A DNA stretch of 64,000 nt from Argopecten irradians. Lineage: Eukaryota; Mollusca; Bivalvia; Pectinida; Pectinidae. Each line of letters starts with the position of its first letter. The stretch's first letter is position 1. The position numbers and the translations under genes are program-made. The notes under the pieces are model-generated. The model ran no database searches and was not told the DNA's origin. It saw only the letters and a program-made list of their open reading frames with translations. Below are positions 21,554 to 54,464 of this stretch, piece after piece. The stretch covers positions 11,517,905 through 11,581,904 of the forward strand of contig NC_091139.1 in assembly GCF_041381155.1 (NCBI RefSeq), in the 5' to 3' direction.

Positions 21554-24500
21554 TTACATGTATTTAAAATTTCTATTTAGCATAAGTTTCCTCTTTTTAC
21601 TCTCACGCTGACCCATTAACGTTTCCCAGTCAAAATTTTCGACCTGTAAATTAAAAGTGTATATATTAGGACGTGTACACGTAATTGTTTTAAGACGCTA
21701 ACGAAAGTTACGTAATTGAATCTTTTAGTGTCACATTCAGGTAATAGTGTTGCTCCCATACTTGACAGGGTTATCCAGGGAAAAGACAGCTTTAATTTTC
21801 ACACGCTTTACAATGACGTCATCGATATATGCGAAGACTACTGATGAGGATGATATAAATTTTTCGATTTTTTTTTTTTTTTTTTTACAGTATTAGAGAA
21901 AAATAATGAAACATGAGTCTGTCAAGTGGACAGGGATATCTCAACCCGAGTGAAAGATTTTGCTCGCCTCGGGTTGACCAGCCAATCTGTTTGAGATATC
22001 CTTGCTCACTTGACAGAACCATGCAAGGTTCAATTATTCCTGATGTCCTATAAAGTTGAGAAAATGTCAATACCAAATCACGTCATTCGCAATGGGAAAA
22101 TCTTAATCAATACCGACAGTGTATTGTGAATTTTGTGTCAAGTGGATAGAGATATATCAACCCTCGTGAAAGAGATTTTGGCTGGTTAACCCGAGGCTTA
22201 CCGAGGGTTGACGATCAAAATCTTTCAAAAGAGTTGAGATATCCCTGTCCACCTGACTGGCCCGTGTACAATTCTTTTTCACTCATACTTTAAAAGGAAA
22301 TGGTGAAAATTAAGTCGACATGAACGTCGCTGTGCGTAAAACGGTTGCCACATGCATTGATGACGTCACTGTCTAGCGCGTGTGAACTATCTTTTCCCTT
22401 CCCCGGTAAAGAGACGGAGTTATCTTTTCCCTAGTAACCGCGGGATAACCCTGTCAAGTATGGGAGAAATTGATATCTTTGACAATGAAATAGCAATCAA
22501 GGTCGGCTGACATAGCATATCCAGTCACCGATACTGTAATTTCAAACACCGTATAGCCAGTTAAATAATTCTAGATATTTTGCGGATCACATTTTCGCGA
22601 TTATAGAAATATACCTGGTTATATGGTATTGTTACTATATTTTAGAGAGTGAAAAAAATCCGGTAAGATACCTTCCTGTGCCAGTATGTTATGTTGGTCG
22701 ATTGTGAGTATTTTGACCTTCGTCTGGAAAAAGAGAGCGACAATTTGCTATGATGCGACGCATTATTTGTTTGAAATGCATAAATTACCTTATTTTATTG
22801 GATAATATAAGAAACAGCAAAATTATAACAATAGAAATACATTAGTAAAGGGTAAACAAAATATTTACCTTTCTTTTACTCCTAGTAAAAAAATAATTAA
22901 AGACTTTCAGAACGCAGGCTTCAACTCACTGTGTAAGTTAATTTAACAAATAAATCATATGAATGTATGCTAGACAGAAATAACATCAAACTTTAACTAT
23001 ATAAACTATATCCCAACCATACGGTAATATCCGGGAGAAATATTTATGTACACAAGAAATTGGGGAAAACAAGTACATTAATCAAAACAGATATTGCCAT
23101 TCATGTTACAGTAACGATCCAGTTTTACCTCCTCGTAATTCTGTAGTAAGCCCTTGGTTTAAATGTAGATGGATCAACAGCTGTAAATAAAATTAATGCA
23201 TGTTGGTATTAGAAGCAGCAACCTTTTGATATCTGAACTATCTATCACGAAACTGCTAATATTATAACTTTAAAGATGCTCCACCGCTGATACAGCATAA
23301 ATAATATTCATTATTTGAACAATAATTAGTATTTAATCGAGTATATATATGTCTAATTAAGACAAAAAATAGTATAAAATAATTGATTTTGCCATTGGTG
23401 CATGCGCAATCAGTACTCCATATATGATATGGTGCAACGGATTTTTTTCGGGATGCAATTAATTATTTTTTATATTTTTAACTTAAAGTAAAATACATTT
23501 TGTAAGTAGCTCAAACTTTTCAATTGTGGTAATGGTGTAAAGTAAGTAACTTTTGTAACTGAAGAAAAATACCAAATCGTTTGCTCCTGTTTTTGATAGT
23601 GAAAAAATACGATTTGTCAGCGGTGGAGCATCTTTAATAAAATTTTGGGATTTCGACTTGCTATAATTAAATTTATCGACTACCACACAATTTATATAAA
23701 AATTATCTATTCTTTAATTATATTCCTTAAATCGAATTAATCATGTAAGATAAATTTAAGGACAACTCGTTTAAGGTTTCAATCCGTCATGGCCACCACA
23801 AGGCGAAGACCCCTAGTTATTTATCATACAAACTTTATATGACTACAGCGTTATAATAGAACAAAATACCTCCAAGTGATCGATACTTTTTGGACGCGAG
23901 GCGTTTTCTCCTGAAACATATTTGAAATATGAGAAAGAAATTAACGTAAATCTAAAGAATGTATTCATATTCCGTATACTTATAGGGTAATATTGTTATT
24001 GCATGAACAATACAATACTGTACTGTTAAAACCCAATACGTATCTAAAAATAAATAAAAACAATAACGACTGACTAGGGAGCGCTCACTAGTCAGTCTTT
24101 ATTGTTTTTATTTCTTATAGATTTCGTCCGTAAGGATTTTTCTTTAAATTTATCATATATCTGTATATATGTATATATATGATAAAGATTATTTTAAATT
24201 GTTATATATCATTGATGTATTTAAAAGTTAAATTTCAAAAGAATAAATCAATCAATTATATCCTATATTTGCACTGCATTATTACATCCACATGTCCATC
24301 CATTCATCAATTAACTATTCGATTATGCCTCTCAATCACCCCTACATACATTTACGATAAGAATTCACACCATCAACGTTTGTTTTAATATGTTATTTTT
24401 GTGTCTTCATGTAAAGTCACATATCATACGCTTAAAATTTGCTGGACAGACAGACCTTAATTTTTCGATGGTCAATTGTGTCATATACATGTATAAACGA

Positions 24501-27500
24501 GTTTCTAATGTTTATTTTACCTCAAAACTCTGTGATAAATTCCGGATGTTTATCTGGAGCTGTGACAATATCATCTGGTCAGGAGATTCGTCCATGGCAT
24601 TAGAAGCTGGCAACCGCCGAAAAAATGTTCAGTATACAAATGTACATTATCTAATGAGCTAATGCTTAGCATTGTTAGAGTTCAACGATGCATGTCAATC
24701 GTATGGGCCATACTTACAAGATAGAGACATGAGCACAATAAAACTCAACTAGTAAGTGATCATCAAATATTATTTTATCAAAACGATGTATTTGTATATG
24801 TGCAAAAGTGGTTTTGAGCTGTTTTACGATCACAGTGACTTAAAATTTCTATTGCAGCTTGATAGTCATGGACTATTTGGTCATAAACATAGCATCTCAA
24901 AAATATTAAAACGTAGGTAATAGGTAGGTAAAACATTGTCGTAAAAATAGAATACCATGAATATTTATCTTTTCAGGTTTTAAAAGAATTTTTTTTTTTT
25001 TTTTGAAATGGTGTCAAGGTGAAATGAAACCAAATGGGTTATATCTCGAACAGTCACCAAAATTTAATATTTCCGTATATACTGCATTGGTACACTTAAA
25101 TTAAGCGAATGTTCCTATAGTATTAATACGTTCTCACAATTCATATTTAAAAAAACCATATACATATCAGTAAACAAATAAAAAACGAAAACCAAATTAT
25201 CTTGTTTACGCGGCATCCATTTCTATCATGTATGATCAACTATCTGATGTGCAAACAAAAGATGTTTCTTTATCAAAAATAACAATAGAAACCAACAGCT
25301 TACCTGTAATAATTAGGATGTGACATGACTTCCCGGGTGTTGTTTCGTACGTCACAGAACTCGTCATCGTCCGGAAGTAAGGAGTAACCTTCATAAGATA
25401 TCTACTGCTTGCATTGAGTAAACACGTATTTGGGGAGTTAAAAAGAAGAGACCCTGGACTGATCCTGCCCTTCCAGAGATGGTCCTGACTGGAACACCCC
25501 TCCTTTATTTCTATGGAGTATGTAATGATGACCGATGGAAGCGGGATATCCGGGGTATCCCACAGTTCGTGTGTTGTGATAGGTGCTTGGATGGTATCTT
25601 CTGGTATATATACCACTCTTTGGTGGGGACGTATTGCTGAACATGCTGATAACAAAATGGTTTCAACAATCCAATCATATATGCATTTTATGTTTCTGCG
25701 TTACGTGTTAACGTGCAATTTCTTTTCTTCATCAGTGAATATTACTTTATATCTTCCAGCAGAGTTCTTTACAAAAAACATGCATCAAGTAAGCTTCGTC
25801 AGATACCTATTTATTGTGGCTCTGATTATTTCTATAATCAATTGTGCAGTGGTATAGATGTATTCTTAATAATAAAACATTCGGCTCGGCCACAATCATT
25901 AAATGATCTTGTTCATTGACAAGAAGCTCAACGAAATGAAGACAAACTTATGTTCTCACTACCCATACATGTATTATGTAATTATACGTAGTCAGATTTG
26001 ATTGCGCTTGACAATTGGTCAATGTCTAGTATTTACAATGTAATGAGTATGAATAAGATAACAATGTCAATTCATGTCTTTTTCGAGTAAAATTCAGGAG
26101 AATTTTTGGACAAGCTCAGTTCAGGTCAAATTGCCTGTGAATTACAATGGGGACAACCTACGTCATCGGAAGTGATATCGGACACACAAAAACAATGAAA
26201 AAACGCCCGCTTCAAGATGAAAATCGGCTGAAATTATGACATAACAGCAATGCATCTTCTAAACCTATCGCGCGTCAAAGACAGTGTATTGTTAGAGATT
26301 ATATGAAGCTATTAAATATCGTCAAACTAGCTCAGTTAATGCAAACACCTCGACACAATATTTTTTGACAGCAGGGATATCGGTCACATTTTATTCAATA
26401 AACTGTTAAAAGTTGTAAATAAATAGATGTTGCTGTCACAAAACCGTCCCGTTTACTAATATGTAATATATGACTGTCGAAAGAAAATATTTCCTTCATT
26501 ATATCTGCTAGTGGAGAAACATAGACGGTGCTTAATTAGAAATTATGAAAGTGATATCGGTCACATCCAAAGTTACGAAAATTGAATATTACAGCATTGT
26601 ACATGTAGTCGTTATTTACGCATTCATGCAACTCCAATGGATACCCATCAAAATACTTTTATTGAATTGATCTTTTTAACCCACCATCAGCAAATGGTTG
26701 GCGAGCTATGAAAATAGCCTCCACCCATTGCTCGTCATCCGTCCGTCTTTAATTTCTGTTATTTCTCTGAAAGTACTGAATCGATTTATTTCGATACCGC
26801 TACATGTATTTACCAGAGAATATTAAGGATCTTTTTTAAATTTCATCTTTAGAAAGTCATCTTTCTTGATTCTAATAGATGAACTTGTTGCTATGGTTCA
26901 AATTCAACATGTGAGCTTAATACTTAATGAACCTTTCTGGAATTTTTTAAGTACTACAGGTATCTCTCTCTTTACTCTTGTTGTGCCTAATGCACCAATG
27001 GGAAAACGCAGTAATCGACAACTTCAAGTTCGTTACCATGTAGACATACAATTATCAAATATTTTGTTCGATATAGATATATTTTGATAATCATTTTTAA
27101 CATAGGATTGTATTTATTAATGCTCATTTTTGAGACAGATAAGATTACAAAATAATGAATATTTGGCTATCTTGAAATTATTTGACTACCACGGTGATTT
27201 ATAGCATTCATATACATATATTTACTTTTTCACTGCAACCCTAATATGTATACCTACCAAGCGCATTTGACATTCAGGGGTGCATGATCTGCTATCCGCT
27301 TATATTTATGTGATGTCATAATTTTTGTGCCATCGATCACAGAAAATGGCTGTTTCGTCCTTGACGATATTGATTTTTTTCTTTATAGATACAAATATCT
27401 TGGGATGTTATCATACAAGTGTTATCAAATGAAAATGTATTCATTAAATTGCATTCAGTTGACAATTAAGGGAGTATGAATGCCAACTGGACATCTGTTA

Positions 27501-30500
27501 ATTCAACATGAAGCGCTAAAGATATTGGACCAACATGTTAAATTGACCGATTTGTAAATCCAATGGTAAACGTCACGATATCTCTTGGCCCTCCTGTTAT
27601 CAACTGATTTGCTTTTATAATTTGTTTGCATATGATCATTTGTGCTATTGTTGTTAAGATATATTCTAAGTACCTTTTCAATCGTTATTGTGTGTGTTAA
27701 ATCTGTGGAGAAATTATTAGTGAACTGACATGTAGAACTGTACTAACGCTATCAGCTAAAAACCCTCAGTGATCCTGTCTATCATGTATTCACGTATTTC
27801 TGTAGCTTATAGATCAGTGTGCTTTTCCTTTTGTTTACATCGGATGCCTTTACATCTTTAAGTTTTATGTAGTTTCTTCTATATTGTCACTGCGAAGTTT
27901 TTAAATTATACGCAAAGACAATGCAAGAACAAAGGGTGTGTACAAATACATGTATAAACAAAAACTAAACAATATACAGTGTACGAATACCAAAGTATTC
28001 AGCAAAAAAATTGTTACGATAAAAGCTAATGATGTATCATGTATCTCGGTAGTATTTCCTCTTTACTTGCATGATTAGTTAGGGAAAACAACGCTGCAAT
28101 ATTTCAGCAATCTTTACGAAGCGACAAAGCATTTCAAAATCTTTGGATGTTACCGTTACCCTGTGAACGACATTCTTTTTAAAAACAACAAAACGTCAGC
28201 TAGGTTATACATGTATGTCACTTTTGTAGCGGATAAAATGAACTATAGCTACTATTTGATATATAAGGTATTTCATGTCAGTAAATAACAGTAAAGTTAA
28301 AAAAAATTACACTTGACATATTTTCGGTGAATAAAATGTGACCAATCGCCACGCTGTGAAAAAAAAGACAGACTGATGATGAGCAATAGACGAAAAGCGA
28401 TTTCAATAGCTCATTAACCATTTGCTGATAGGGGGTTCAAAAGTCGTCTTTCAAGATCAGATAAATTCAATAAAAGTATTTTGGCGTCTTATCCACAGTT
28501 TTCGTAACTTTGGATGTGACCGTCATCCCTAAAGTTCTAAGTGTGACCGATATCACTTTCATAACTTCTAATTAAGCACCGTATATGATTCTCCACTAGC
28601 AGATATAATGAATGAAATATTTTCTTCCAACAGTCATATATTACATATTAGTAAACGGGACAGTTTTGTGGCAGCAAAATTTATTTATTTGCAATTTATA
28701 ACGTTTTAGTGAATATAATGTGACCGATATCCCTGCTGTCAAAAAATATTGTGTCGAGGTGTTTGCATAATCTGAGCTAGTTTGACGACATCTAATAATT
28801 TCACAGAGTCTCTAACAATACACTGTCTTTGACGCACGATAGGTTAAGAAGATGCATTGCTTTTATGTCATAATTTCAGCCGATTTCATCTTGAAGCGGG
28901 CGTTTTTTTCATTGTTTTTGTGTGTCCGATATCACTTCCGGTGACGTAGGTTGTCCCCATTGAATTAGTGCGTGTTGATTCATTGGAAATGTAAAAAAAA
29001 AAACATATCTAATTTTACGAAAAAGGTTCTCCCGATAGAGTTTCAGTGCTGCTCGAAATGACCACAGGGGGCCAACTTAATGAAAATGGATGTTGTCATA
29101 CATTTTTTTGTATTTGGAGGATGGACTGATGAATATAAATGACAGTCATGTGATTTTTTCCCGAAAAATACGAGATTTGAAAAATTATTAAAAAATCGGG
29201 ATATTTACTATAAAACAGAGAAAGGGACGACAGTCGCCATATTCCGATACGTTTGTTTTCGCGGAAAATTTGAATATTAAAACGAATCGGAATATCTCTG
29301 ACGAAACCCATTGAATTACACTGCAGGGGAAGTCACTCTAATCGCTCTTCACTAGGACGTTGCTTTCGATGTCACAAGTCAGAAAGCGCCGGTAATTTTG
29401 GATTAAAATATTGCGTTCGACTATATAGACATCGTTTATATGCTTTTGCATGGTATGTGTGTTATTATGGATTATCGGAGGACTGATGCGTGATTATGAC
29501 TCTAGGAAAAAAGGTATACTATTGTGAAAAAAATTACTTTAATCGAGGTGGGGGTAAAAAATCCAATATGGCGACTGTCGTCCCTTTCTCTGTTTTATAG
29601 TAAATATCCCGATTTTTTAATAATTTTTCAAATCTCGTATTTTTCGGGAAAAAATCACATGACTGTCATTTATACTCATCAGTCCATCCTCCAAATACAA
29701 AAAATGTATGACAACATCCATTTTCATTGAGTTGGCCCCCTGTCGAAATGACCAATATCACGAACCTTACTAAATGTCGTAGTTTATAACATTCTGTATT
29801 TGCATATTACAGAGTTATCTGCCCTTGGGGTAGGTATCAAATGTGACGTCATGTGTTTGCGAGCGTAACGTCATAGTTTTCCGAGAAAATGACGTGAATT
29901 GCGCTCACAAAATAATGACGTGATAATCGATACCTACCCACAAGGGAGCGAACTCTAACATGCAAAGATGGGTAATCAAAGTGAAATGGTATACTCGCAG
30001 AATAAAATATTTAATGTAAGCATACCAACTACAATGGCTGCATTTACTTACCGAATGTTAATTTTAGCTGTTGTAAATGCGTGGTTACTAGGAATAAACT
30101 GAGAGGAGTAGATGAAGGTGTCATGCTTGTTAGATTCACGGTCGGGATAGCTTCGGTTTCTTGTTGAAATTTCCATAACCTAATACAGGAAGAATAAGTT
30201 AACTACATATTCTTTTATATTGCTTATTGTATGGAATAATCGTATAGAATCAGGTCCACTACCATCCGAAACAAAAAACAACAACTTAAAAACAATAACA
30301 ACTAAAAGAAAGCAAACTTATATAGATGCCTAAAATACGATAGCTCATATACGCCTTGTCAATATACACTAAAGCAACATAGTTTTGACAGTAATTTCAC
30401 GTAAAAACGTTGTCAGCAACCACAAAAGCAGTCGTTTTATGTCAAGTGTTGTCCATTCTTTTTTGTCAAATTTTGCTTTGCTTTTAGTTTATTTTGTTGG

Positions 30501-33500
30501 CCCGTAAACGCCTGTCACTTTTCTAACGTTGCTTTGGGATAATTAACATTCCTTTTTTGATAACAACCGACTGATTTATTGGGGAAGGTGATATTTTGAT
30601 ACCTTAAGTTGACATTTTGGTGGTCTCTCGTTATCGTTGTGATCTATTATGGGCATGAAAAGATTACGGAGAAGAAGCGATTATATTTCCGGCTAACCAA
30701 GCTCTGTATCAGTGCTGGCTTGGTTCTGTCAACAGTAAGGGGAGGGGTGAGTGCAGGTCGAAAGGGGTCAGTTTAAACGACCTCGGTGAGATTAGGTCCC
30801 TGAGGAGCTGTCAGCTAATTTTAGTAGGTAATTAAGATGATTGCGATCTATTGTCTGGATAATTAGAGAGACTTTTGGTTAGACAGTTCAGGTTCGGATG
30901 TTGGAGCTGAGATGTTGTGGCGATCTCATTGTATGTGGCTTTGTATAAAATATGTAAATAAACTGTAAATTATTCTACTGATTTGAGTCTGACTTGAACC
31001 ACACTAATCAATTATGGGGCAAGGAGATATTGGGGGTAAGGGAAAGAAGGTTACCTGCTTAGCGTTTAATACCACCTTTGTCCCATCAGACGGCCGAGTG
31101 TTATCAACGTTAGAAAAGTGACAGGCGGATACGGGCCAACACAGCGTTGACGAAATAAACTAAAAGCAAAGCGAAATTTGACCAAAAAAAATTGTACGAC
31201 ACTTGACAAAATTCGACTGCTTTTGTGGTTGCTGACAACGTTTTTGTGTGAAGCTACTGTCAAAACTGTTGCTTAAGTGTATTTTTACAAAGCGTAAATG
31301 GGTCATCGTACTAAAATGAGGTTACAGCATTAAACAAGCTTCCAAGTTTTGTCGTCTGGCAGAAAATATAAGGCGACCCGCGTTATGAAAATTAACATCT
31401 AGTTCTTTTCAATTAAACTGAATGTGATGATAAATGTAATATTAACGGTAAACTTTCGTGAATCTACAAATTTAAAATTACATTTCCATTTTATAAAAGG
31501 AAGCGAACCTTAAACAGAAAGATGGCAAACCAGGTTCCGTGTATAACAATAGTAATTTTATAGATAAAAATAAAATTTCTGCGCGAAATCTAATGTTCCT
31601 GAATATGACAAGATCATACTTGTAGTGTTAAAAGTAAATAAAATAATAAATCACTAATAAATTACAAAACGTTTTCGTTTTCGAGAGAATATTATTTCAC
31701 AAACGACTAATCTTCGCTTTTAAATGTTTTCTGTATGAATTTAAAGTTGTCCAATCTTTTTTATTCTAAGAGGGTTTTAAACAGGACTACTAAATGCTCT
31801 CCTCGACACATATACCCATACATTATAGGTACAAAATATTGTATTAATACACACTCTCACTCACACACGCAGCATTCCGTAACAACAATAGAAAAGGAGA
31901 GAAAATGAGGTACAAAGAAAATATGGGGACGTTTGGGGTGTAAAGAAATTATCTTTTGGAGTCTATGATATATTCGGACACAATTTAAAAAAAAATAGTT
32001 TTTTTAAAGAAACATTATTATTTATGAATCAAATTTTGAGTTAGGATTGATATTTGGAGCCAACTCTTTTGCAAGTTGTAAATCAACTTTACAGGTTGCT
32101 AAATATTAGATATAGCACAATTCATTGACATTTTCCATTTTCAAAGGAATCAGCACAGAAATCAATATTTATGATTTATGCGCAGATTCCCCAGAAGATA
32201 AAAAAACATATTGATATTTTGTGATGTCCAAGATTTCAGTATTTAGAATGTAAAGTTGTAAGTATTTTAAGCTTTAAGTGTTTCTGAATTTGATTTCACG
32301 TATTTACTTACTGTTCCTGTACGCAGTTCACTGTCTGTAAAGGTTAAAATTGTTCAATATGAATAGACTATTGTTCAATATGAATAGACTACATGTTCAA
32401 AGTTAAGGATTTATCTTAGAGAACTCTTCATGATAGCTTTCTCTTTAAACCAATAAACAGGCAATCTGATGTATTAACCCCGGTAACCAGGTTACTTTTA
32501 GTATCTAGCAATTTACTTTCGTATTTTATTAACAAAGCTGAACTAAACAAAATAAACCATGAGAAAGCAAAAAGGAAATTTCCACAAATTAAAAGATAAA
32601 TTGACAAAATTTATTGAACACAAAACGTGCAAAAAGTACGATTATGATAATGACAGGATTCCAAAAGTAATTATTACACTAAACAAAAATAGGGGGAAAT
32701 CCTTAAATCTACAATGTAAAAATTCTACAATTGCCTAAAATAAAAAAATAAAATACTTTTAACGTCACAAGAGTTGGCTGAGCAAAATAATTTGATTGAA
32801 GATAAAAACAATACATGCAATTCGAGTAAACTCTTTCTTGAGTTATGTAAAGCATTTTTAGAAAACATATTTTTAGTCTGTACCTTGAGGAAGTGTGTTT
32901 TCGTGGTTCTATTCACACTGTCCAGCGATACTTGAGCTAGTCTCGCCTCTCTGTCCACAATGTCCCCGTATTTACGCCTTAATAAACTTAAATGACGCAT
33001 CTTGGAATCAAAGTCCTACAACAGATAGTTGAAAGGTTGCGAATAAAATCCTTTGTTGGTTTCATCACGTCATTCAAAGACGGCCTCCCGTGTGTGTGGT
33101 GTCGTGTGTGTGTGTGAAGTGGGTGATGCGTGTTTTAGGAGACTGTGATATACTTGTGTTGTGTCTTCTTGTATAGTGGAAACTCTTGCCCAGTGCTATG
33201 TCACTTAGGCATGCCTCTGAAGACACCAAGTCGAAATTTTGCGAGATCACCTTAGATATTAAACATTGATATCAAGCTATCATATGACTGTTTCTTAATT
33301 CACAGCGAAAACGTTTGCTATGTAGCCGATTATTTTTACGCATCAAAATTTCGCGGTTTAGCTTCAATGGCCGATTATTTTTACGCATCAAAATTTCGCG
33401 GTTTAGCTTCAATGGTATATATAATTTTTAATGTTTCACTGATCAAATGTTTGCGATCATCGCGATGATCCGCAAAATTGGGAAAATATAAATATCTCTG

Positions 33501-36500
33501 ATGGTTATCCGTCCTAATTCTTACCTTCTTCCCTTCCTTGATCAGGCTACATTCTTTCTCGTTTAGTATTTGTCTCAATGCTGCAAATTCATGTTGGATG
33601 TTTTGTTTCTGGTAAATCCACTCAAGCTTGAGATAGAAAAAAAATATTCAAATCAGCATTGGTAATATATTCTTGAAAATTAGACCCATTGGATATCTTC
33701 AAAATATATTAAGTACATGTAGGGTCATCATTGAATTAAATCATTATACAATGAATGTATCAGGTATATCATAAGACCTGTCAGAATAAGTCTTTCCCAG
33801 ACTGTTTGAATTGGGTCACTCCATCTGATTCGTAGAAGCGCTCGTCATACCCTAAAGCCATTGATTTCAATCTCTTGCTCATTTGCGTTACGTTACATAT
33901 TTGGCGTTTCAACTAAGCTTTTCTGAGTTTCGGGGAAATTGACATGTAATACTGACGAGTCCTATGGATATATAGAGAACGCATGGTCAGTGTCCTAAAA
34001 CATAAACTGTATTTTAGTGGGGGTTTGTCTTTCTGTCCCGAACAAAAATACAGCTGATATTGTAAGTCACTGACCATGTGTTCTTTTTATCCTGCAAAAT
34101 AACCCAAATGCATTTGATATTTTTTTATATATTTAGCAGTGTTACATATTCGTAACACACATGTCCGACTTTCAAACAATATATCAATCAATAGGAGATC
34201 GATAGAATCGACGCAAGTGAAAAAATATTGCTATTTTCCGCCAGTGCCGAAGACAACAAAAATACATGTAGTAGGTGTATTCCGACAATGCAAAAATACT
34301 TGCTGCAGGATAAAATTCTGTATCGTTTGCACAACAAACGACTTATTGTGTGCGGGTATACTAACATAGCAATGGTTCAGTGATGTATTATCTAATTACT
34401 AATATCACTGAGAAAATGTGGCAATACCTACTCTTACTGACTCTTCACACTCCTGAAGCGCTGTCAGGTTAATGTGGGCTTTCTCCAAACATCTCGACCC
34501 GACCTCTCTCTGTAACTCAATCAGCTGTCTCTGAAGATAAATCATACAGGTATTACTTTCTCCATTAGTAGTCATGGCATGGTTATTGGTAAAATCTCAT
34601 TAATTTGCATAACTTATACTAGCAGCTTTACCATTATGAAGTGAACTGACACAAACGTACTTTATGACCTAACAATGGTTTTGTAAGCTCGCGATTTGGC
34701 TATAATTAAGGTATTAATTCGAATCATAAACCTCCAAAACACTCATCATAATTTTCAAACATTTTCAACTTGAAGACGTTCATTTACCATAAATGTAGAA
34801 GTACAGGCTAAGAACTTACCAATGACAGCATATAAGATCGGGTAATTTTTTTTATGAAAGTCGATATCATTGCATCAACATACACGAATATCTAATGTTG
34901 CAAAGATAACCCGAATGGCATTCATTACGTAATCATATGATAAATAAGTCTTGTCATAAGTTTTCGCTACAACAGAAGACATTGTTAGAAATTGCAGAAT
35001 AGCATACCATCGTGCCTGCGACAATAGACGGCGGTTTTTACCGAGAGTGACGAAAAAGCTTCCTATATGATGCCGGTAAAATCTGGTTTTGTTGAACTTC
35101 ATTTAATAATGACAATGATAAAATGCATACCTTTTCATTTTTGACGTAAATTTCCAATTTCTCCACGTCATGCAGGGTATGACCGGAATAGGCTAGACTC
35201 GCTGCACAGACTGGATGGTCACAAGTAAGGCAGTACCAATTCAGCGGTTCCTCGTGAACTTCACAGCGTAAGACGGTCTGTCCCTTCTGGATTCTGTGAT
35301 TCCTAAACCGTGTGTGGCGTGAGTGGAGAGCATGTATACATATGGAGCAACAGTTTATGAGACAGTCTTCACATGAATATCGTGCTACTTTTCTATTATC
35401 ACAATATCCACAAATAGCAAGTGTATCAGACTCTTTACAGCGCCGTGTTCTTAGCGCAGCCGATTGCCTCGCTTCCTGTGATTGTTCAGGGTTAGATGTT
35501 TTGAGTGAAGATATTTTCTTTCCTTTTAGTTTATCACAGTATGATGACGTAGGTGTCTCTGATGTTCGACGTAAAGGCGAATCCACTTTGGTAGGACTTT
35601 TGACTTTCAAACAAAGGTCTTTTGAAGAAGCATCTTCGGTTGTTGTTTTTGGCTTAAGAGAATAATGCTGAGATAATGTTTGTACCCGTCTTTTACGACA
35701 TTCAGATGAAAAATGTGTCTTCACTTTCTGTTTTAAGGTTCTCCCGGAGCTATTACTCCGGTACATCGGCATGTGTTTGACTATTTCTTCGTCAGATGGC
35801 CCCATGTTGTCTTCTTCATACGAATCACTTTCTAGTGCACAACTTTGAAATGCATTTGTCAGATTCAGAGATTTGTCTGCTTCTTCCAATAAATGTCTTA
35901 TATTCAAGATTGAATGAGTTTTATGTGGAAATTCATCTTCTTTGAAAATGTCTTCGTCTGTTGTATCGCCCTCCTCCGTACTGTTGTTTACGTCCGTTGT
36001 TGTACCACCCTCCTCCGTACTGTTGTTTACGTCCGTTGTTGTACCGCTCTCCTCCGTACTGTTGTTTACGTCCGTTGTTGTACCGCTCTCCTCCGTACTG
36101 TTATTTACGTCCGTTGTTACACCACCCTCCTCCGTACTGTTGTTTACGTCCGTTGTTGTACCACCCTCCTCCGTACTGTTGTTTACGTCCGTTGTTGCAC
36201 CGCCCTCCTCCGTACTGTTGTTTACGTCCGTTGTTGTACCGCCCTTCTCCGTACTGTTGTTTACGACCGTTGTCGTACCAACCTCCCCTTTATTGTTGTT
36301 TACGACCGTTGTTGCACTGCTCTCCACCGTACTGTTGTTTACGACCGTTGTCGTACCAACCTCCCATTTATTGTTGTTAACGACCGTTGTTACACCGCCC
36401 TCCTCCGTACTGTTGTTTACGACCGTTGTCGTACTAACCTCCCCTTTATTGTTGTTAACGACCGTTGTTACACCGCCCTCCTCCGTACTGCTGTTTACGT

Positions 36501-38200
36501 CCGTTGTCGTACCACCCTCCCCTGTACTGTTGTTTACGACTGTTGTTACACTGCTCTCCTCTATGTGGTTGTTTATGACCGTTGTTACACCGCCCTCCTC
36601 CGTACTGTTGTTTACGTCCGTTGTCGTACCGCCCTCCTCCGTACTGTTGTTTGTGTCCGCTGTCGTACTGCCCTCCTCTGTACTTTTGTTTACGACCGTT
36701 TTCGTACCGTCCTTATCTCTACTATTGTTTACGTCCGTTGTTGAACCGCTCACCTCCGTACTGTTGTTTACGACCGTAGTCCTACCGTTCTCTTCCGTAC
36801 TGTTGTTTACGACCGTAGTCGTACCGCTCTCTTCCGTACTGTTGTTTACGACCGTTTTCGTACCGCTCTCTTCCGTACTGTTGTTTACGACCGTAGTCGT
36901 ACCGTTCTCTTCCGTACTGTTGTTTATGACCGTAGTTGTACCGCTCTCTCTTCCGTACTGTTGTTTACGACCGTAGTCGTACCGCTCTCTTCCGCACTGT
37001 TGTTTACGAGCGTAGTCGTACCGCTCTCTTCCGTACTGTTGTTTACGACCGTAGTCGTACCGCTCTCTCTTCCGTACTGTTGTTTACGACCGTAGTCGTA
37101 CCGCTCTCCTCCGTACTGTTGTTTACGACCGTTGTCGTACCGCTCTCTTCCGTACTGTTGTTTACGACCGTAGTCGTACCGCTCTCTTCCGTACTGTTGT
37201 TTACGACCGTAGTCGTACCCGCTCTCTTCCGTACTGTTGTTTACGACCGTTGTCGTACCGCTCTCTTCCGTACTGTTGTTTACGACCGTAGTCGTACCGT
37301 TCTCTTCCGTACTGTTGTTTATGACCGTAGTTGTACCGCTCTCTTCCGTACTGTTGTTTACGACCGTAGTCGTACTGCTCTCTTCCGTACTGTTGCTCTT
37401 TACCCGTAGTTCGACCGTAGTCCGCTCTCTTCCGCACTGTTGTTTACGACCGTAGTCGTACCGCTCTCTTCCGTACTGTTGTTTACGACCGTAGTCGTAC
37501 CGCTCTCCTCCGTACTGTTGTTTACGACCGTAGTCGTACCGCTCTCTGTTGTTTATTCCGTACTGTTGTTTACGACCGTTGTCGTACCGCTCACCTCCGT
37601 ACTGTTGTTTACGACTACGCTTCCGTACTGTTGTACCGCTACGCTCTTCCGTACTGTTGTTTACGACCGTAGTCCTACCGTTCTCTTCCGTACTGTTGTT
37701 TATGACCGTAGTTGTACCGCTCTCTTCCGTACTGTTGTTTACGACCGTAGTCGTACTGCTCTCTTCCGTACTGTTGTTTACGACCGTAGTCGTACCGCTC
37801 TCTTCCGCACTGTTGTTTACGACCGTAGTCGTACCGCTCTCTTCCGTACTGTTGTTTACGACCGTAGTCGTACCGCTCTCTTCCGTACTGTTGTTGATGT
37901 CCGTTGTCGTATCACTCTCCTCTGTACTGTTGTTTACATCCGTTGTTGTACCGCCCTCCTCCGTCCTGCTGTTTACGACCGTAGTCGTACCGCTCTCTCC
38001 TCCGTACTGTTGTTGATGTCCGTTGTCGTATCACTCTCCTCTGTACTGTTGTTTACATCCGTTGTTGTACCGCCCTCCTCCGTCCTGCTGTTTACGACCG
38101 TTATCGTACCGCCCTCTTCCGTACTACTGTTTATGAATGTTTTCTTTTTTTCCTCCTCTCCTTCATCACATTCATCTTCAGGTTTGTCTGTGTTTTCCAT
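21554..38200 (-). CDS. TRIM-like protein: repeat-array N terminus, two B-boxes, coiled coil, no RING
   Basis: Proposed exons in transcript order are 35131-38200, 34438-34530, 33525-33626, 32884-33015, 32312-32334 (23 nt), 30052-30179, 25304-25645, 24521-24606, 23870-23910, 22672-22723 and 21554-21643. Phases agree from the end of exon 1 to TAA. The start MENTDKPEDECDEGEEE leads into a 13-residue repeat of the NNSTEESGTTTVV type. After a linker come B-box 1 (CGYC..CEDC, 35266-35412) and B-box 2 (CEVH..CLTCDHPVC, 35170-35265), where the expected sixth zinc ligand is Ser. Exons 2-4 are coiled coil (RQLIELQREV, LEWIYQKQNI, MRHLSLLRRKYGDIV). Exon 7 could be a beta-sandwich, perhaps FN3-like. The array carries frame slips, so its true length is uncertain; about 1,380 residues if continuous. 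A 52-nt candidate exon at 23129-23180 would end the frame early. Role: probably an intracellular scaffold; without a RING, ligase activity is not expected. Confidence 0.75.
21753..22466. mobile_element. 714-bp TIR element in the last intron of the TRIM-like gene
   Basis: Terminal inverted repeats of 24 bp begin CTCCCATACTTGACAGGGTT. Subterminal parts also match in reverse (GGGAAAAGA). The interior has two diverged blocks with TGTCAAGTGGACAGGGATAT and stretches of GGGTTGA, which are themselves inverted. No coding capacity. A related fragment (GTGTCAAGTGGACAGGAGTA) occurs near 9747. The family is not identified, and the target repeats are unclear. Confidence 0.8.
23270..23637. mobile_element. 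TTAA-flanked MITE (AGATGCTCCACC type), intact copy
   Basis: Inserted in an intron of the TRIM-like gene and flanked by TTAA. The ends are AGATGCTCCACCGCTGATA and GTCAGCGGTGGAGCATCT. About 360 bp; the interior is the reverse of the other copies (ATTGAACAATAATTAGT side first). Non-coding. Confidence 0.85.
24052..24113. repeat. short hairpin in an intron of the TRIM-like gene
   Basis: An imperfect inverted repeat of about 27 bp per arm: AAATAAAAACAATAA, GACTGACTAG, a short loop, CTAGTCAGTC, then TTATTGTTTTTATTT. It could fold strongly in the intron RNA. No further copy was noticed. Confidence 0.7.
26145..28961. mobile_element. 2.8-kb non-autonomous element with about 570-bp terminal inverted repeats
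   Basis: The ends read CAATGGGGACAACCTACGTC and its complement, flanked by GAATTA on both sides (a likely 6-bp target repeat). The inverted arms span about 26145-26715 and 28395-28961. They share AAAACGCCCGCTTCAAGATG, AGTGATATCGG and ACAGTGTATTGTTAGAGA. The middle (26720-28390) has no frame worth calling. It fills much of the intron between exons 6 and 7 of the TRIM-like gene. The long arms suggest a foldback-type DNA transposon; no transposase is present. Confidence 0.8.
29065..29742. mobile_element. 678-bp palindromic element with a 12-bp flanking direct repeat
   Basis: The ends are CAGGGGGCCAACTTAATGAA and its complement. Arms of about 190 bp carry CGGGATATTTACTATAAAAC and GACGACAGTCGCCATAT; the middle is about 280 bp of unique sequence. 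Immediately outside, TCGAAATGACCA occurs on both sides (29053-29064 and 29743-29754). Matching short frames in both arms reflect the symmetry. It lies in the same TRIM-like intron, next to the 2.8-kb element. Confidence 0.85.
29799..29966. repeat. short palindromic MITE-like element, TGACGT type, best copy
   Basis: Inverted ends TTTGCATATTACAGAGTTAT and the complement-like TCTAACATGCAAA, with the inner AGGTATCAAATGTGACGTCA also mirrored. It sits about 85 bp below the donor of exon 6 of the TRIM-like gene. It is the fourth copy in the window and the only one outside the carbonyl reductase introns. Confidence 0.75.
30366..31290. mobile_element. foldback element upstream of exon 6 of the TRIM-like gene
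   Basis: Inverted arms at about 30366-30530 and 31100-31290 share TTGTCAGCAACCACAAAAGC, TTTGCTTTGCTTTTAGTTTA and CGCCTGTCACTTTTCTAACG. Weaker similarity continues inward (TTGATAACA). The unique middle of about 0.5 kb carries no frame of note. Its right part ends with AATAAACTG and a CA-ended stretch. The element type is uncertain. Confidence 0.65.
31316..31500. repeat. degraded arm of the GGGCCACTACC foldback family
   Basis: It shares AAATGAGGTTACA, GGCGACCCGCGTTATGAAAA and TAATATTAACGGTAA with one arm of the element at 3265-4077. It lacks clear ends. Old remnant, no coding function. Confidence 0.6.
35968..38135 (-). repeat. 39-bp coding minisatellite, unit 1 (about 55 copies)
   Basis: Direct 39-bp units encode 13 residues of the type NNSTEESGTTTVV (variants NNSTEEGGTTTDV and NNNKGEVGTTTVV). 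The period is a multiple of three, so frames stay open across the array on both strands. Variants group by zone: DV types are mostly at the B-box side and both outer ends, VV types in the middle. Short extra bases (for example CTCTCTCTTCC near 36945 and 37070) change the frame. The array forms the N-terminal half of the TRIM-like protein. Confidence 0.9.
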
Positions 38201-38997
38201 TGTCAATCGTCTAATGAATAAAACACATTTAGGTAACATATCAACAAAAACATAATCCCAACTTCAACTCAGTAAAACAATGGTGAAGTACAGTATACCA
38301 AGAAGGTTCAAAGAGAGTACATCCAGCTAGTTAGTCACAATAAACAGATGTCGTCAATCTCGTCGTAACTACGTAATTACCTTCACTTAAATCGCTGATG
38401 ATACTTATTTTTTATTACTTAAAGATATTTTTAATCCACGAATTTTATCTCGACGAACTAGATTTGAACGAGAACTCGTAAAATTAAGTAGCCGCGAATG
38501 GAAGTTTACAGTAACCGATTGAATGTTTACCATAAAACTTTTCTTTAGTCTTTGACTCTCATTGTTTTTGTTTTTTCGTCAGTAACTAAAATTGGTAACA
38601 AAAAATATTGAAAAAGATGATGCACGTGAACACCTTATGTAGATACGAAAATGGTGCTACTATCTAGAAATGGAAAGTAAATAATTTGGCAATAGCTATC
38701 ATCACACTATCTACACAGCTTAGTGGTAGGATGGCAATTTCAAAAGCAAAAATATATATAAAAAAGTTTTGGCTTCCTATATTTAACATTTTTTATGTTA
38801 TAATCTTGAGAATTACCAATTGTGTAACCATTTGAAAAATATAGTTATTTGGGCTTTGTATAAAGATATAAAAAGTTGTCTTTTTGTATTTTTGAACGCG
38901 AAAGATGATAGTTCTATAAAACTATCCGTCCGTATAGTTCATACAACCTGACACACCGTGGTATTAATCCCACCTCAATCCCATTTCGACCAGTTCC

Positions 38998-39362
38998 TTA
39001 AAGATGCTCCACCGCTGACAAATGGTATTTTTTCACTATCAAAAACAGGAGCAGACGATTTAGTATTTTTCTTCAGTTACAAAAGTTACTTACTTTACAC
39101 TATTACCACCATTGAAAAGTTTGAGCTTCTAATTTTACTTAAAGTTAAATATATGAAAAATAATTAATTGCATCCCGAAAAAAATCCGTGGCACTATATC
39201 TTATATGGAATGAAGTAATGATTACGCATGCACCAAATGCGAAATAAATTATTTTATGTTATTTTTTTGTGGTAATTATGCATATATATACACGATTAAA
39301 CATCAATTATTGTTCAAATGATGAATATCATTTATGCTCTGTCGGCGATGGAGCATCTTTAA
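38998..39362. mobile_element. TTAA-flanked MITE (AGATGCTCCACC type), unit 1
   Basis: Flanked by TTAA, with ends AGATGCTCCACCGCTGACAA and CGGCGATGGAGCATCT. 365 bp, non-coding. The same insertion is present in unit 2 at 51193-51557, so it predates that duplication. Confidence 0.85.
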
Positions 39363-39924
39363 ATTAAGATACCCCAATATATATAATGAGAAACTCTCCC
39401 TGTTCATCTTTGCAACTTACACACAGAAATTCTTCATGTCTACTAAGGTTAGAAATTGACATACGGGTCCTTAAATTGGGATATCAGAGCGTAAGTACAT
39501 ATAAACAATAAAGTTTCACACATCCGAATTTCATCTCAAAAATTCGATATATAGTAGATCTATTTAATCCTTCAGGATATCCATTTTCCGAAACATCATA
39601 AAAGCGTAATCATTCATGAACATGACTCCATACACTACGGTAAACAAAGTAATTTTCGTGTGCTAATATTTCACGTATATCGCGACGATTGGACATCGCG
39701 AAATTTTATCTTCGCGAACATGTTTTGATCAAGAATGCGGTAAAATGACCGTGAAAAAGTCGTTAGCCCAAAATAAGATGGTATACAGTAAATCAAAATG
39801 CTTGCCACGGAAAGTATATTTCGGTTTTGTGAGTTGAGTTACAACGGTTGTTGTGACATTTTTTATCGACATCATTGGTTAAAGATTTTCCGCTGCCGAG
39901 AGAGAATATAAAACAATATTTATC

Positions 39925-40232
39925 CGCATTCGTACAATAATTGATGTTTAATCCTGTAATCTAATTAACACAAAAATACATATAAATAAGTTGTTTTGGT
40001 TTTTGTTGTCTGTAAAATTAGTACCTCATTCCATATAGGCCATAGTGTCTTGATTGTTTTCGGGATGCAATTAATTATTTTAGATAATTTTATATTGAAG
40101 TAAAATAAGAAACTCAAACTTTTCAATGATGGTAATAGTGTAAAGTAAAATTAACTTTTGTTACTGAAGAAAAATACTAATTCGTCTGCTCCTGTTTTTA
40201 TTAGATTCGTCGGCGTTGAAGTATATTTAACC
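39925..40232. mobile_element. older reversed relative of the AGATGCTCC MITE
   Basis: In reverse orientation it shares TTCGGGATGCAATTAATTAT, TTACTGAAGAAAAATACTAA and CTGCTCCTGTTTTTATTAGA with the younger copies. Its ends are eroded (GGCGTTGAAGTATATTTAA). The copy at about 52130-52445 is its duplicate. Confidence 0.65.
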
Positions 40233-41667
40233 GCCCGTCTGTGTTAGTAAAATGTGTTCAACTCTAAAAGTTTTGCATTTGTACATAGCATACACACCCA
40301 TTTCTTGTGTATTGAAGGGTCCATTACTTTGGCTGAGACAGAGAGTGGTACTAGTAGTTTGATGAAATACGGTGAAGTTTTTAATCCGTCAGAGGTGGAT
40401 ACGGCGAATATCTATACCTGGTATCAGCTTTAATTTCTCATATGGATGAGAAATACCGCTTTATCGCTCTCAGACGGTTCTAACTTATTACCTCGTGTAG
40501 AAGTAACGAATGGAAGGTGACAACACATGGGGGTTGGGGGGGGGGGGGGGGAGGGACAAAGCCCGAACTTTTTCGTCGTTCTGCCGTCATTTTTAACGGC
40601 AGATATAATTCTGACTAACAGGGGTTCTGACCTTGGAATCGAGGACGCTGCCTGTCCCAGGTAAACATTGTGTATAGGGTGTGTATGTATACACAAGGCA
40701 TTGTGGAATCGGTTTCCCTTATAAGGAGTTGTTTACTGAAGGGAGCTGTGTCTCGGGCTGCTTGGTGATTGACAGGTTGAGTAAGACGCGCGACGAGAAG
40801 GTCGGAAGAATCGGAGGAGCCGGCACTGACCAATCAGAATGGAGTGATTGATGGGCAAAATGCATGACGGTAGGAAGGATGGATGTTGGCTAATCAAAGT
40901 AAAGTATGCACGTGAAGTTTTGAACCTCGAATTATACGATTTTTTACTTGATTCATTTGGATATATTTTGTGTTTTTAACAATGTAATTTATTGCATTGG
41001 CAGTATAGTTGATTGTCCTTACCATAATGTGGACATTTACTTGTAGATTTATGTGACTCGACAGTTTATGTGTACGTTTTTTGAGTCTTTTAATTTTGTG
41101 TAATGTTCAATAAAATGTATGGAGTGTAAGTAACTCAATTTGAGCTTTGGAGGCTTTTTTTAGTTACCCCTGTCGTAGAGGGCTTCCGTCTCAGAGTTAT
41201 ATATAGAACAATGTCTCGCGGTATGTTCAAAAAATGTTTTACGTTTACAGATAGGCCTAATTCTTATAGGTATGTTCACTTGTTTAGGTTTTACACTCAT
41301 TTGGATAATATTTGTTGATATTTGTTCACTTGCAATACAGTGTGCCAGATGTTGTTACCAATTCGATTTTAATAAACGACATATAAGTGCCTCGGCAATT
41401 ACTTGATAATATGATTATTAGTACTTGGTCTTTCCCTAGGTAACAGTATACCGGGTGGGCCCCCAAAGCATAAATAATTTGAATTAGAACAGTAACCTCG
41501 TGATTTGTATTGTGTCTGATTCCTCGGTTGTTTTTTTCGTTGTAGTAAGATGATTTTATGTAATGCTTTCCTATAGGAAATTCTAGGCTGAACATTTTTC
41601 TCGAGTAATGAACTTTGAATGCCTATAAACATCAACATGTTCACACATGATATGTTGTTTACTTACA

Positions 41668-41700
41668 TGTACATCACGGTCTGTCAGCTCGTGACCCATT
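41668..41700 (-). other. candidate 5' exon (11 codons) upstream of the TRIM-like gene
   Basis: On the minus strand an ATG begins the frame MGHELTDRDVH, directly followed by a good donor GTAAGT. The same is found in unit 2 at 53831-53863. Its phase (0) does not fit the acceptor at about 38211 in the frame of MENTDK, so if used it would be a leader exon with an upstream start codon, or belong to another transcript. Weak evidence. Confidence 0.25.
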
Positions 41701-42009
41701 ATCGTTCTAAGCAGATATATCCTACTAAGCGTTTGTGCTGATGACGAGTGTACACAAAACTGAGATTAAACAATGGTTTACATATAACATGTGATTTCAT
41801 ATAAATATTCACGTTTCGTAAAACTACCTACCTCTTATTCGTCCTACATTGTATTCAATTTATTTTGTGATACCCGGAACTCCCGTGGGTTTACTTTCGA
41901 TTTGACAATATGAAAATAAAATTTATCAAGGGAGACGATTCTGTCATTCTTACGCTGACGCTCCTACATTTCCTGAAATCTTATCATTGAACTCGGCTAA
42001 CATCGGCTA

Positions 42010-42180
42010 GTTACGGAAACTACCGACAGTTTCCGGAAGTTCCGAAGATTTCCGGAAATTTCTCCGAGATGTTATAATTGCTTGTGATTGGTGACGAACG
42101 CTGCCGATGAAGACAATATTGACTTTCGACACCTTCCGGAAATTTACGGAAATTATCGAAGGCTTCCGCCGTTGAATGAT
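42010..42180. promoter_or_regulatory. cluster of TTCCGGAA motifs upstream of tRNA-Met, unit 1
   Basis: At least four TTCCGG or CCGGAA cores lie within 170 bp (TTTCCGGAAGTTCCG, TTTCCGGAAATTTC, CTTCCGGAAATTTACGG). CCGGAAGT is the core bound by ETS-family factors. The cluster is also in unit 2 near 54170-54340. Whether it serves the tRNA, a nearby start of transcription or nothing is unknown. Confidence 0.3.
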
Positions 42181-42217
42181 AGGTCCCAATAGCACATTTT
42201 CCAGTCTACATGTATCC

Positions 42218-42309
42218 GCCTCGGTAGCGCAGTAGGTAGCGCGTCAGTCTCATAATCACACTTAAACAGAGCGATCTGAAGGTCGTGAGTTCGATCCTCA
42301 CCCGGGGCA
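42218..42309 (+). tRNA. tRNA-Met-CAT: tRNA-Met (CAT), elongator type, with a 19-nt intron, unit 1
   Basis: Full cloverleaf: acceptor GCCTCGG with CCGGGGC, D stem GCGC with GCGC, anticodon loop CTCATAA, T arm GTGAG-TTCGATC-CTCAC, discriminator A. The mature length is 73 nt once the intron at 42255-42273 (ATCACACTTAAACAGAGCG) is removed. The intron lies after position 37, the standard place for nuclear tRNA introns. The internal A and B boxes are intact, and a T5 Pol III stop lies at 42316-42320. The mature sequence closely follows animal elongator tRNA-Met. CCA is not encoded, as expected. Confidence 0.95.
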
Positions 42310-43655: not shown

Positions 43656-44122
43656 ACTGTCGCAGCATTCCGTAAGCAACAAAAGAAAAGGAGAGAAAGA
43701 TGAGGTACAAAGAAAAAATAAAAATGGGGACGTCCTGGGGTGGTAAAGAAATAATCTTTTGGAGTCAATGATATATTCGGACAACAATTTAAAAAAATAT
43801 TATTTATAAAGAAACATTAATTATTTTAATGAATCAAATTTTGAGTTAGGAGATTGAATATTTGGAGCCAACTCTTTTGCAAGTTGTAAATCAACTTTAC
43901 AGGTTGCTCTAAATATTAGATATAGCACACAATCATTGACATTTTCCATTTTCAAAGGAATCAGCACAGAAATCAAAATTTATGATTTATGCGCAGATTT
44001 ACCCAGAAGATATAAAAAAAACAATATTTTGTGATATCCAAGATTTCAGTATTTAGAATGTAAAGTTGTAAGTATTTTAAGCTTTAAGTGTTTCTGAATT
44101 TGATTTTCACTAATTTACTTAC

Positions 44123-50100: not shown

Positions 50101-50368
50101 TTTACGTCCTCTGTCGTTCCGCCCTCTCTTCCGTACTGTTGTTGATGTCCGTTGTCGTACCGCCCTCCTCTGTACAGTTGTTTATGTCCGTTGTCGTATC
50201 ACTCTCCTCTGTACTGTTGTTTACATCCGTTGTTGTACCGCCCTCCTCCGTCCTGCTGTTTACGACCGTTGTCGTACCGCCCTCCTCCGTACTACTGTTT
50301 ATGAATGTTTTCTTTTTTTCCTTCTCGCCTTCATCACATTCATCTTCAGCTTTGTCTGTGCTTTCCAT
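44123..50368 (-). pseudogene. TRIM-like copy 2, 3'-truncated
   Basis: The first exon (47021-50368) repeats copy 1. It starts MESTDKAEDECDEGEKE, carries the repeat array, and has the same B-box 1 and B-box 2, with Ser at the same zinc position. Coiled-coil exons 2 (46324-46417), 3 (45393-45496) and 4 (about 44731-44866) carry extra bases that break the frame, and the exon 4 donor is altered. The 23-nt exon (44123-44145) is intact. The exons that follow in copy 1 are absent: the sequence runs into unit 1's tail. Within exon 1 there are slips near 47829, 47960 and 50120. Either a decaying duplicate or a badly resolved assembly. The B-box part itself is unbroken, and a short product cannot be ruled out. 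Confidence 0.7.
47850..50308 (-). repeat. 39-bp coding minisatellite, unit 2 (about 63 copies)
   Basis: Same 39-bp unit as in unit 1, but about 290 bp longer overall. There are more NNSTEESGTTTVV units in the middle and fewer frame slips there: 580 codons are open on the minus strand between about 47955 and 49697. The difference in copy number between the two units shows array expansion or contraction since the duplication, or assembly collapse. Confidence 0.9.
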
Positions 50369-54372: not shown

Positions 54373-54464
54373 GCCTCGGTAGCGCAGTAGGTAGCGCGTC
54401 AGTCTCATAATCACACTTAAACAGAGCGATCTGAAGGTCGTGAGTTCGATCCTCACCCGGGGCA
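54373..54464 (+). tRNA. tRNA-Met-CAT: tRNA-Met (CAT) with a 19-nt intron, unit 2
   Basis: Identical over all 92 bases to the gene at 42218-42309, intron included (54410-54428). It is followed by a T5 stop at 54471-54475. The flanks just outside differ (CAACGTGTATCC against CTACATGTATCC), so it is a separate genomic copy or a separate allele. Expected to be functional. Confidence 0.95.

What the first reader, a model, noticed from the sequence alone, without database searches (positions are those of the whole stretch)
21554..38200. RING-less TRIM-like protein whose N-terminal half is a 13-residue repeat array
Seen: two B-boxes and coiled-coil exons follow about 55 copies of NNSTEESGTTTVV-type repeats; no RING cysteines occur before the B-boxes. 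Known: TRIM proteins normally start with a RING, and variants without it tend to act as scaffolds or regulators. Inference: the Thr/Ser/Asn/Glu-rich array could be a phosphorylatable low-complexity arm that varies in length between alleles.
Basis: partly seen in the sequence, partly recalled or inferred. Interest (0 to 1): 0.7.

Follow-up and report, generated by a model that had tools for sequence, protein, structure and literature searches.

The report
RING-less B-box protein with 13-residue repeats
An animal genome carries a gene for a TRIM-like scaffold protein that lacks the usual RING part and instead seems to begin with a long acidic repeat; the repeat and domains are real, but the assembly shows the locus twice with frame breaks, so whether the repeat is translated whole is unproven.

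Summary
The observation mostly holds. On the minus strand, 38131-35953 is an array of 55 39-bp units (consensus NNSTEESGTTTVV), followed in the same frame by two B-boxes and then by six phase-consistent exons with weak likeness to TRIM coiled coils. No RING pattern was found in 94 kb around the gene; 7 of 7 control loci gave one.

Three things were missed. (1) The locus is present twice side by side (31868-43650, 43661-55918; 55 and 63 units). Indels beside the join are one-sided (55 against 5), controls balanced: more like un-merged read-error sequence or haplotypes than a decayed duplicate. (2) As assembled, no ATG reads through the array to the B-boxes. (3) The sixth zinc ligand of B-box 2 is Ser in both copies.

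The array behaves like coding DNA in the NNSTEE frame: 0 of 107 clean units carry a stop, and synonymous variants have spread most (P about 0.009), though distinct variants look neutral. RING-less B-box ORFs are common here (8 of 11 read). Best reading: RING-less TRIM-like scaffold with an acidic N-terminal arm. New variant of a known kind.

The parts
35953..38131 (-). Copy A repeat array, 55 units of 39 bp, consensus NNSTEESGTTTVV
   Evidence: 7 insertion sites; only the last, partial unit is shorter than 39 bp, by 3 bases, as in copy B; about 25 units in the B-box frame
38132..38210 (-). Copy A lead of the exon: candidate acceptor before 38210, ATG at 38200, acidic lead MENTDKPEDECDEGEEEKKKTFI
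   Evidence: the ATG frame stops after 75 codons as assembled
35413..35952 (-). Linker between array and B-boxes (about 180 aa); in-frame ATGs at 35805, 35772, 35766
   Evidence: over the 813 bp from 35943 to the donor A and B differ by 5 synonymous, 4 non-synonymous and 2 multi-change codons
35296..35412 (-). B-box 1, eight of eight zinc-ligand positions
   Evidence: aligned with MID1 2jun
35170..35265 (-). B-box 2, seven of eight ligand positions (sixth is Ser: VCAAS)
   Evidence: ligand reading is mine from the MID1 alignment
35131..35131 (-). Last base of the array/B-box exon, donor gtatgc
34438..34530 (-). Coiled-coil exon 1 (93 bp)
33525..33626 (-). Coiled-coil exon 2 (102 bp)
32884..33015 (-). 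Coiled-coil exon 3 (132 bp)
32312..32334 (-). Small exon (23 bp)
   Evidence: phase-consistent
30052..30179 (-). Exon after the coiled coil, position of a COS box (128 bp)
   Evidence: COS likeness is by eye only
25304..25645 (-). Exon that looks like a fibronectin-III domain (342 bp)
   Evidence: likeness by eye only: no Pfam fn3 at E <= 10, model pLDDT 32; no other place in the genome matches it
47842..50299 (-). Copy B repeat array, 63 units
   Evidence: 715 aa of array open in one frame; +2 at units 50143 and 47996
47021..47841 (-). Copy B linker and B-boxes, 98% identical to copy A in protein; lacks one T against A at 47838, at the array/linker border
31868..43650 (.). Block A of the side-by-side pair
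43661..55918 (.). Block B of the pair; insertion-rich in 43661-46500 beside the join

Best explanation
One host gene for a RING-less TRIM-like protein: acidic lead, array of 13-residue repeats, basic/Ser linker, B-box 1, B-box 2, TRIM-type coiled coil, then a possibly MID-like tail. It has been assembled twice side by side, either as two haplotypes or as un-merged contig ends. Without a RING it probably does not act as a full ubiquitin ligase. The coiled coil would make an antiparallel dimer with B-boxes at both ends, and the long acidic, probably disordered arm with CK2-type sites would project from each end as a multivalent, phosphorylation-tunable binding or spacing arm, so the protein would be a scaffold or a regulator of RING-bearing TRIM partners. 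Shown here: array, B-boxes, phase-consistent exon chain, no RING pattern, doubled locus in the assembly. Inferred: translation of the whole array, false duplication, dimerisation, disorder, phosphorylation, scaffold role.
For: Array and domains. Exon chain: six further exons, canonical splice sites, all phases fit, 924 codons from 37083 with no stop. PDB sequence matches extend from B-box 2 into the coiled coil of TRIM28 (7z36, E 0.0023) and TRIM72 (7xv2, E 0.032). Array coding in frame NNSTEE: 0 of 107 clean units with a stop in that frame against 101 and 28 in the other two; synonymous variants make up 219 of 459 differences, shuffle P about 0.009, against 0.75 and 0.57 in the other frames. 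None of 217 AGs inside the array looks like an acceptor (best pyrimidine score 0.47; the six chain acceptors score 0.60-0.93), so the B-box exon probably includes the array. Frame breaks resemble read errors: within the arrays the indels are insertions (7 sites in A, 2 in B), and beside the join B has 55 extra events against 5 in A, while two older duplications in the window (8/4 and 6/10) and the 5' core of the pair (6/11) are roughly balanced. RING: none found. Papers: six human B-box proteins lack the RING and may regulate orthodox TRIMs (PMC2533329, passages); MID1 B-boxes alone or in tandem do not polyubiquitinate alpha4 (PMC4160256, passages).
Against: As assembled, neither copy has an ATG-to-B-box frame. 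Both copies have a +2 in the same aligned unit (38014 and 50143), about 0.24 by chance by my arithmetic given 7 sites in 55 units and 2 in B. Copy B has a further one-base break at 47838, so its B-box frame reads its last three units in the other open frame (KQQYGGERYNNGH-type). Distinct variants alone show no purifying selection: 13 synonymous, 40 non-synonymous, 1 stop against 13.8, 39.5, 0.7 expected; third-position excess has P 0.06; units are not independent. An acceptor-like AG at 35652 and in-frame ATGs at 35805-35766 would allow an array-less protein. TRIM16 keeps ligase activity without a RING (PMC8251876, passages). Left of the join the indel bias is weaker (35 extra in A, 20 in B), and no N run marks the join. 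No transcript, ortholog or confident fold was available.
Confidence: 0.42

Rival explanations
1. The array is transcribed but not translated in full: a minisatellite in the 5' part of the exon, with the B-box protein starting at the ATG at 35805 (or by splicing to the AG at 35652), giving an ordinary RING-less B-box/coiled-coil protein.
For: No open frame from an upstream ATG of the exon through the array in either copy; ATG 35805 has the context gacaacATGG; AG at 35652 has pyrimidine score 0.73; distinct-variant counts fit neutrality.
Against: In copy A the array keeps frame with the B-box ORF for about 25 units; 0 of 107 clean units have stops in the NNSTEE frame and synonymous variants have spread most; the upstream ATGs would hinder initiation at 35805 (inference).
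Confidence: 0.3
2. A real tandem gene duplication, with copy B decaying (broken coiled-coil exons) and copy A the working gene.
For: Two blocks of about 12 kb, pieces 88-94% identical; the three coiled-coil exons of B carry extra bases that break their frames; no N run at the join.
Against: Beside the join B has 55 extra events against 5; in the listed stretch 40 of 43 indels are extra in B, 27 of the 40 single bases, in introns and coiled-coil exons alike, while the 813 bp of linker and B-boxes have none; divergence is high in B next to the join (4.5-13% per 200 bp against A 31868-33067) and uneven left of it (0-36%), lower in the core. Block B ends before the equivalents of the exons at 30179 and 25645.
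Confidence: 0.25
3. A RING exon exists further upstream or is split across exons, and the array is an inserted segment in an otherwise orthodox TRIM.
For: The first exon(s) upstream of 38210 were not identified; a RING split by an intron would escape the pattern.
Against: No RING pattern in 94 kb on either strand, while 7 of 7 loci with a RING gave a hit (L038 and L039 had guided the loosening of the pattern); in the RING-bearing loci read (L003, L004, L005, L038, L039, L040, L041) RING and a B-box lie in one ORF.
Confidence: 0.1

Closest known systems
MID1/MID2 (class I TRIM: RING, B-box 1, B-box 2, coiled coil, COS, FN3, SPRY)
   Same: Best solved-structure match of the tandem B-boxes (2jun, E 1.1e-5); B-box 1 ligands; order B-box 1, B-box 2, coiled coil
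   Different: No RING found, no SPRY seen by eye, Ser at the sixth ligand of B-box 2, N-terminal repeat array; with MID1 B-boxes as query the two copies are the last of 16 places listed at E <= 0.01 (33% identity, E 0.0096; best place 9.3e-15), so it is unlikely to be the MID1 ortholog
RING-less TRIM-like proteins (TRIM16 and TRIM66 from PMC8251876; TRIM14, TRIM29 recalled)
   Same: B-box(es) plus coiled coil without RING; ligase kept in TRIM16, absent in TRIM66; regulator role proposed (PMC2533329, PMC8251876, passages)
   Different: No N-terminal tandem-repeat arm in those that I know (recall)
RING-less B-box ORFs of this same genome (for example L034, 545 aa)
   Same: B-boxes near the N terminus, no RING in the ORF
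   Different: None of the 8 read shows the array; several are long single ORFs
Coding minisatellites (mucin-type Thr/Ser repeats; recalled)
   Same: Tandem Thr/Ser-rich unit of fixed codon length, copy number differing between copies
   Different: Acidic and Asn-rich, joined to B-boxes; no signal peptide was looked for

Membership tests
TRIM/RBCC (strict definition) | RING before the B-boxes | tested here: not met
   No RING pattern in 94 kb on both strands; 7 of 7 control loci gave a hit. A RING split by an intron would be missed
TRIM/RBCC (strict definition) | One or two B-boxes | tested here: met
   PF00643 above cut-off, 2 stretches; one ligand of B-box 2 is Ser
TRIM/RBCC (strict definition) | Coiled coil directly after the B-boxes | tested here: met
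   Exon chain; weak matches into the TRIM28/TRIM72 coiled coil, E 0.0023-0.051; hydrophobic period peaks at 3.7, shuffle P 0.027, power at 3.5 low, so helix is supported better than heptad
RING-less TRIM-like | B-box plus coiled coil without RING, related to TRIM genes | tested here: met
MID/class I TRIM | COS box | tested here: inconclusive
   Exon 30179-30052 in the right place; likeness by eye only
MID/class I TRIM | FN3 domain | tested here: inconclusive
   No fn3 match at E <= 10; model pLDDT 32
MID/class I TRIM | SPRY domain | not tested
   None seen by eye among ORFs and candidate exons of 16.4-25.3 kb; no profile search of those ORFs was made
Ubiquitin ligase | Ligase activity | not testable with these tools
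   Needs an assay

The most novel reading that the evidence does not exclude
The frame breaks are real: the 39-bp array is a frame-switching coding minisatellite in an animal gene. Length slips inside it join or disconnect the ATG from the B-box frame, so alleles would make either the full scaffold, a short 75-88-residue repeat peptide, or a protein whose arm changes from the acidic NNSTEESGTTTVV reading to the Q/Y/G/R-rich KQQYGRERYDYGR reading (79 of 107 clean units are free of stops in that frame): an allelic on/off or identity switch like bacterial phase variation.
Probability: 0.05. Interest if true: 0.75.

Novelty: new variant of a known kind. Interest (0 to 1): 0.4.

Why it matters
If translated, a TRIM-like scaffold in which a repeat arm of variable length stands where the RING should be would be a natural test of how disordered multivalent arms tune TRIM assemblies, and its array length could be genotyped across individuals. 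It also warns that doubled loci in animal assemblies can pass for decayed tandem duplicates; counting on which side the extra bases fall helps to tell the two apart.

Tried and rejected
Copy B as a decayed paralog was my first reading and was put second because of the one-sided indels. FN3 and COS labels could not be confirmed: Pfam gave no fn3 and both structure models were poor (161 aa of the copy B B-box exon, mean pLDDT 45.1; 113 aa of the last exon, 32.1), so no fold search was made. A first RING pattern missed two RINGs that are plain by eye in L038 and L039; it was loosened and rerun. The 8 RING-less calls rest on the stricter pattern and on single ORFs; their upstream exons were not examined. 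In one search the exon at 30179 was read in the wrong phase; one search has the phase-correct reading. One search also printed a binomial test with miscounted numbers; the corrected one (56 of 62, P 3e-11) is.

Literature: TRIM with RING-less and bivalve found 0 papers; the string NNSTEE found 19, of which 5 were listed (three on plant LEA proteins, one nematode desiccation genome, one on sesame reference genes) and 14 not seen; B-box with tandem repeat, low-complexity and the like found one, on phase separation in disease. Searches were seen as listings only, apart from the five papers whose passages are cited. I saw no description of this architecture in these searches; that is no proof that none is in print. 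A scallop identity (hits on 16 large contigs, 846 Mb) is a guess from recall; one search gave nothing decisive.

Full report
WHAT IS THERE. The window is G000:C6:11517905-11581904 of an 846-Mb, 1508-contig assembly. On the minus strand, 38131-35953 holds 55 units of 39 bp, consensus NNSTEESGTTTVV; 47 of 55 units have no indel. The same open frame continues with a linker of about 180 residues, B-box 1 (35412-35296) and B-box 2 (35265-35170), and ends at a donor after 35131. Six more exons follow with canonical acceptors and donors and matching phases: 34530-34438, 33626-33525, 33015-32884, 32334-32312, 30179-30052 and 25645-25304. They were picked by eye and checked by script; the joined chain from 37083 is 924 codons without a stop.

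DOMAINS. Pfam finds PF00643 above its cut-off in both copies. The nearest solved structure by sequence is the MID1 tandem B-box, 2jun, E 1.1e-5. All eight ligand positions of B-box 1 are kept; in B-box 2 the sixth is Ser (VCAAS where MID1 has CALC) in both copies (my reading). With the coiled-coil exons added, TRIM28 (7z36, E 0.0023; 6qu1, E 0.003) and TRIM72 (7xv2 0.032, 7xyy 0.043, 7xt2 0.051) match from the B-boxes into the coiled coil. COS and FN3 likeness of the last two exons is by eye; Pfam at E <= 10 and a single-sequence model (pLDDT 32) gave no support. The last exon matches no other place in the genome.

NO RING FOUND. A relaxed RING pattern gave a hit in 7 of 7 control loci of the same genome (two of which had guided its loosening) and none in 94 kb around the gene on either strand. 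A RING split by an intron is not excluded. Lack of a RING is not rare here: of 11 B-box loci read, 3 have a RING in the same ORF and 8 do not (stricter pattern, upstream exons not examined, not a random sample). At least 150 B-box places score in this genome; 150 of 734 first-look candidates were scored, so this is a lower bound.

THE LOCUS IS ASSEMBLED TWICE. Block 31868-43650 matches 43661-55918 in pieces of 88-94% identity. The linker/B-box protein occurs at these two places only (2 matches, 9 candidates scored), and a 961-base piece of array DNA matches only in this window (9 matches). Divergence per 200 bp is 0-1% over 33.9-34.7 kb and 35.1-35.7 kb, 4.5-13% over A 31868-33067 (whose partner in B lies beside the join), and uneven, 0-36%, over 41135-43534 (left of the join). 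Indels are one-sided: over B 43661-46500, 55 extra events in B against 5 in A; left of the join 35 extra in A against 20 in B; the 5' core 6 against 11; two older duplications in the same window 8/4 and 6/10. In the 3' part as a whole the count is 56 to 6, binomial P 3e-11. In 32600-35955, 40 of 43 indels are extra in B and 27 of those 40 are single bases. The 813 bp of linker and B-boxes have no indel, with 5 synonymous and 4 non-synonymous single-change codons (ratio about 0.22, two multi-change codons left out). One-sided insertions are what raw single-molecule read errors look like (recalled), so the frameshifted coiled-coil exons of B are not good evidence of decay. I conclude that the pair is more likely an un-merged overlap or two haplotypes than a decayed duplicate, but there is no N run at the join and I had no reads.

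THE ARRAY AND ITS FRAME. B has 63 units, 60 of them clean. Inside the arrays the indels against the 39-bp period are insertions: A at units 38014 (+2), 37661 (+13), 37570 (+9), 37444 (+8), 37241 (+1), 37084 (+2), 36965 (+2); B at 50143 (+2) and 47996 (+2); the last partial unit is 3 bases short in both. At the array/linker border B lacks one T that A has (35948/47838). As assembled, A reads about 25 units (329 aa) in the B-box frame; B reads 715 aa of array in one frame, but its B-box frame reads its last three units in the other open frame. The ATG at 38200 (A) or 50368 (B) runs to a stop after 75 or 88 codons. The +2 in aligned units 38014 and 50143 is common to both; it may be real or chance (about 0.24 by my arithmetic). 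Tests of coding: 0 of 107 clean units have a stop in the NNSTEE frame, 101 and 28 in the others; synonymous differences are 219 of 459, shuffle P about 0.009, not enriched in the other frames (0.75, 0.57). Against: distinct changes fit a neutral expectation (13/40/1 against 13.8/39.5/0.7), third-position excess alone has P 0.06, and units are not independent because they spread by duplication and because A and B overlap. None of 217 AGs inside the array looks like an acceptor.

HOW IT MOST LIKELY WORKS. Shown: anatomy and frame statistics. Inferred: an antiparallel coiled-coil dimer with B-boxes at the ends and a 700-800-residue acidic arm (net -98 over 697 aa of copy B, one [ST]xx[DE] site per unit) at each end, acting as a scaffold or regulator of RING-bearing partners. 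The MID1 work (PMC4160256, passages) reports weaker E3 activity of B-boxes and no alpha4 polyubiquitination by B-boxes alone; the review PMC8251876 (passages) gives TRIM16 as a RING-less ligase and TRIM66 as one without activity; PMC2533329 (passages) suggests that RING-less members may regulate orthodox TRIMs; PMC3503706 (passages) sees TRIM-like genes lacking part of the signature as derived from TRIM genes by duplication and later change; PMC8382680 (passages) lists a B-box orthogroup in its table for bivalves.

PLACE AMONG KNOWN KINDS. It fails the strict TRIM definition (no RING found) and is filed as RING-less TRIM-like. It is unlikely to be the MID1 ortholog: with MID1 B-boxes as query the two copies are the last of 16 places listed at E <= 0.01 (E 0.0096), the best being 9.3e-15. 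What is new, if the array is translated, is the repeat arm in the RING's place.

Noticed in passing
L037:3389-5260 (G000:C15:6593388-6595259): Another 39-bp array, one frame reading CSTEERVLTTVVK: about 8 of 13 residues as in NNSTEESGTTTVV in register, with the shared codons differing at the third base (my comparison by eye); open in several frames, frame-broken, no B-box noticed nearby. Chance or a shared origin is open.
   Followed up: partly
window 15428-15688 (-), with blocks 216-3152 and 14198-16515: Short-chain dehydrogenase exon (PF00106, E 2.1e-11) beside the gene; the region is partly repeated (pieces 81-86% identical).
   Followed up: no
window 10821-13311: Satellite of about 16 copies of a 157-bp unit.
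   Followed up: no
window 26140-26565 / 28542-28966 and 29064-29243 / 29565-29743: Two inverted repeat pairs, 92% and 98% identical, inside the long intron; possibly mobile elements.
   Followed up: no
array, frame offset 2: The alternative open frame of the unit reads KQQYGRERYDYGR, a Q/Y/G/R-rich peptide; 28 of 107 clean units carry a stop in it.
   Followed up: partly
G000:C4:36233956-36314713: Cluster of 8 listed MID1-like B-box places in about 81 kb; the two read (L040, L041) carry a RING.
   Followed up: no
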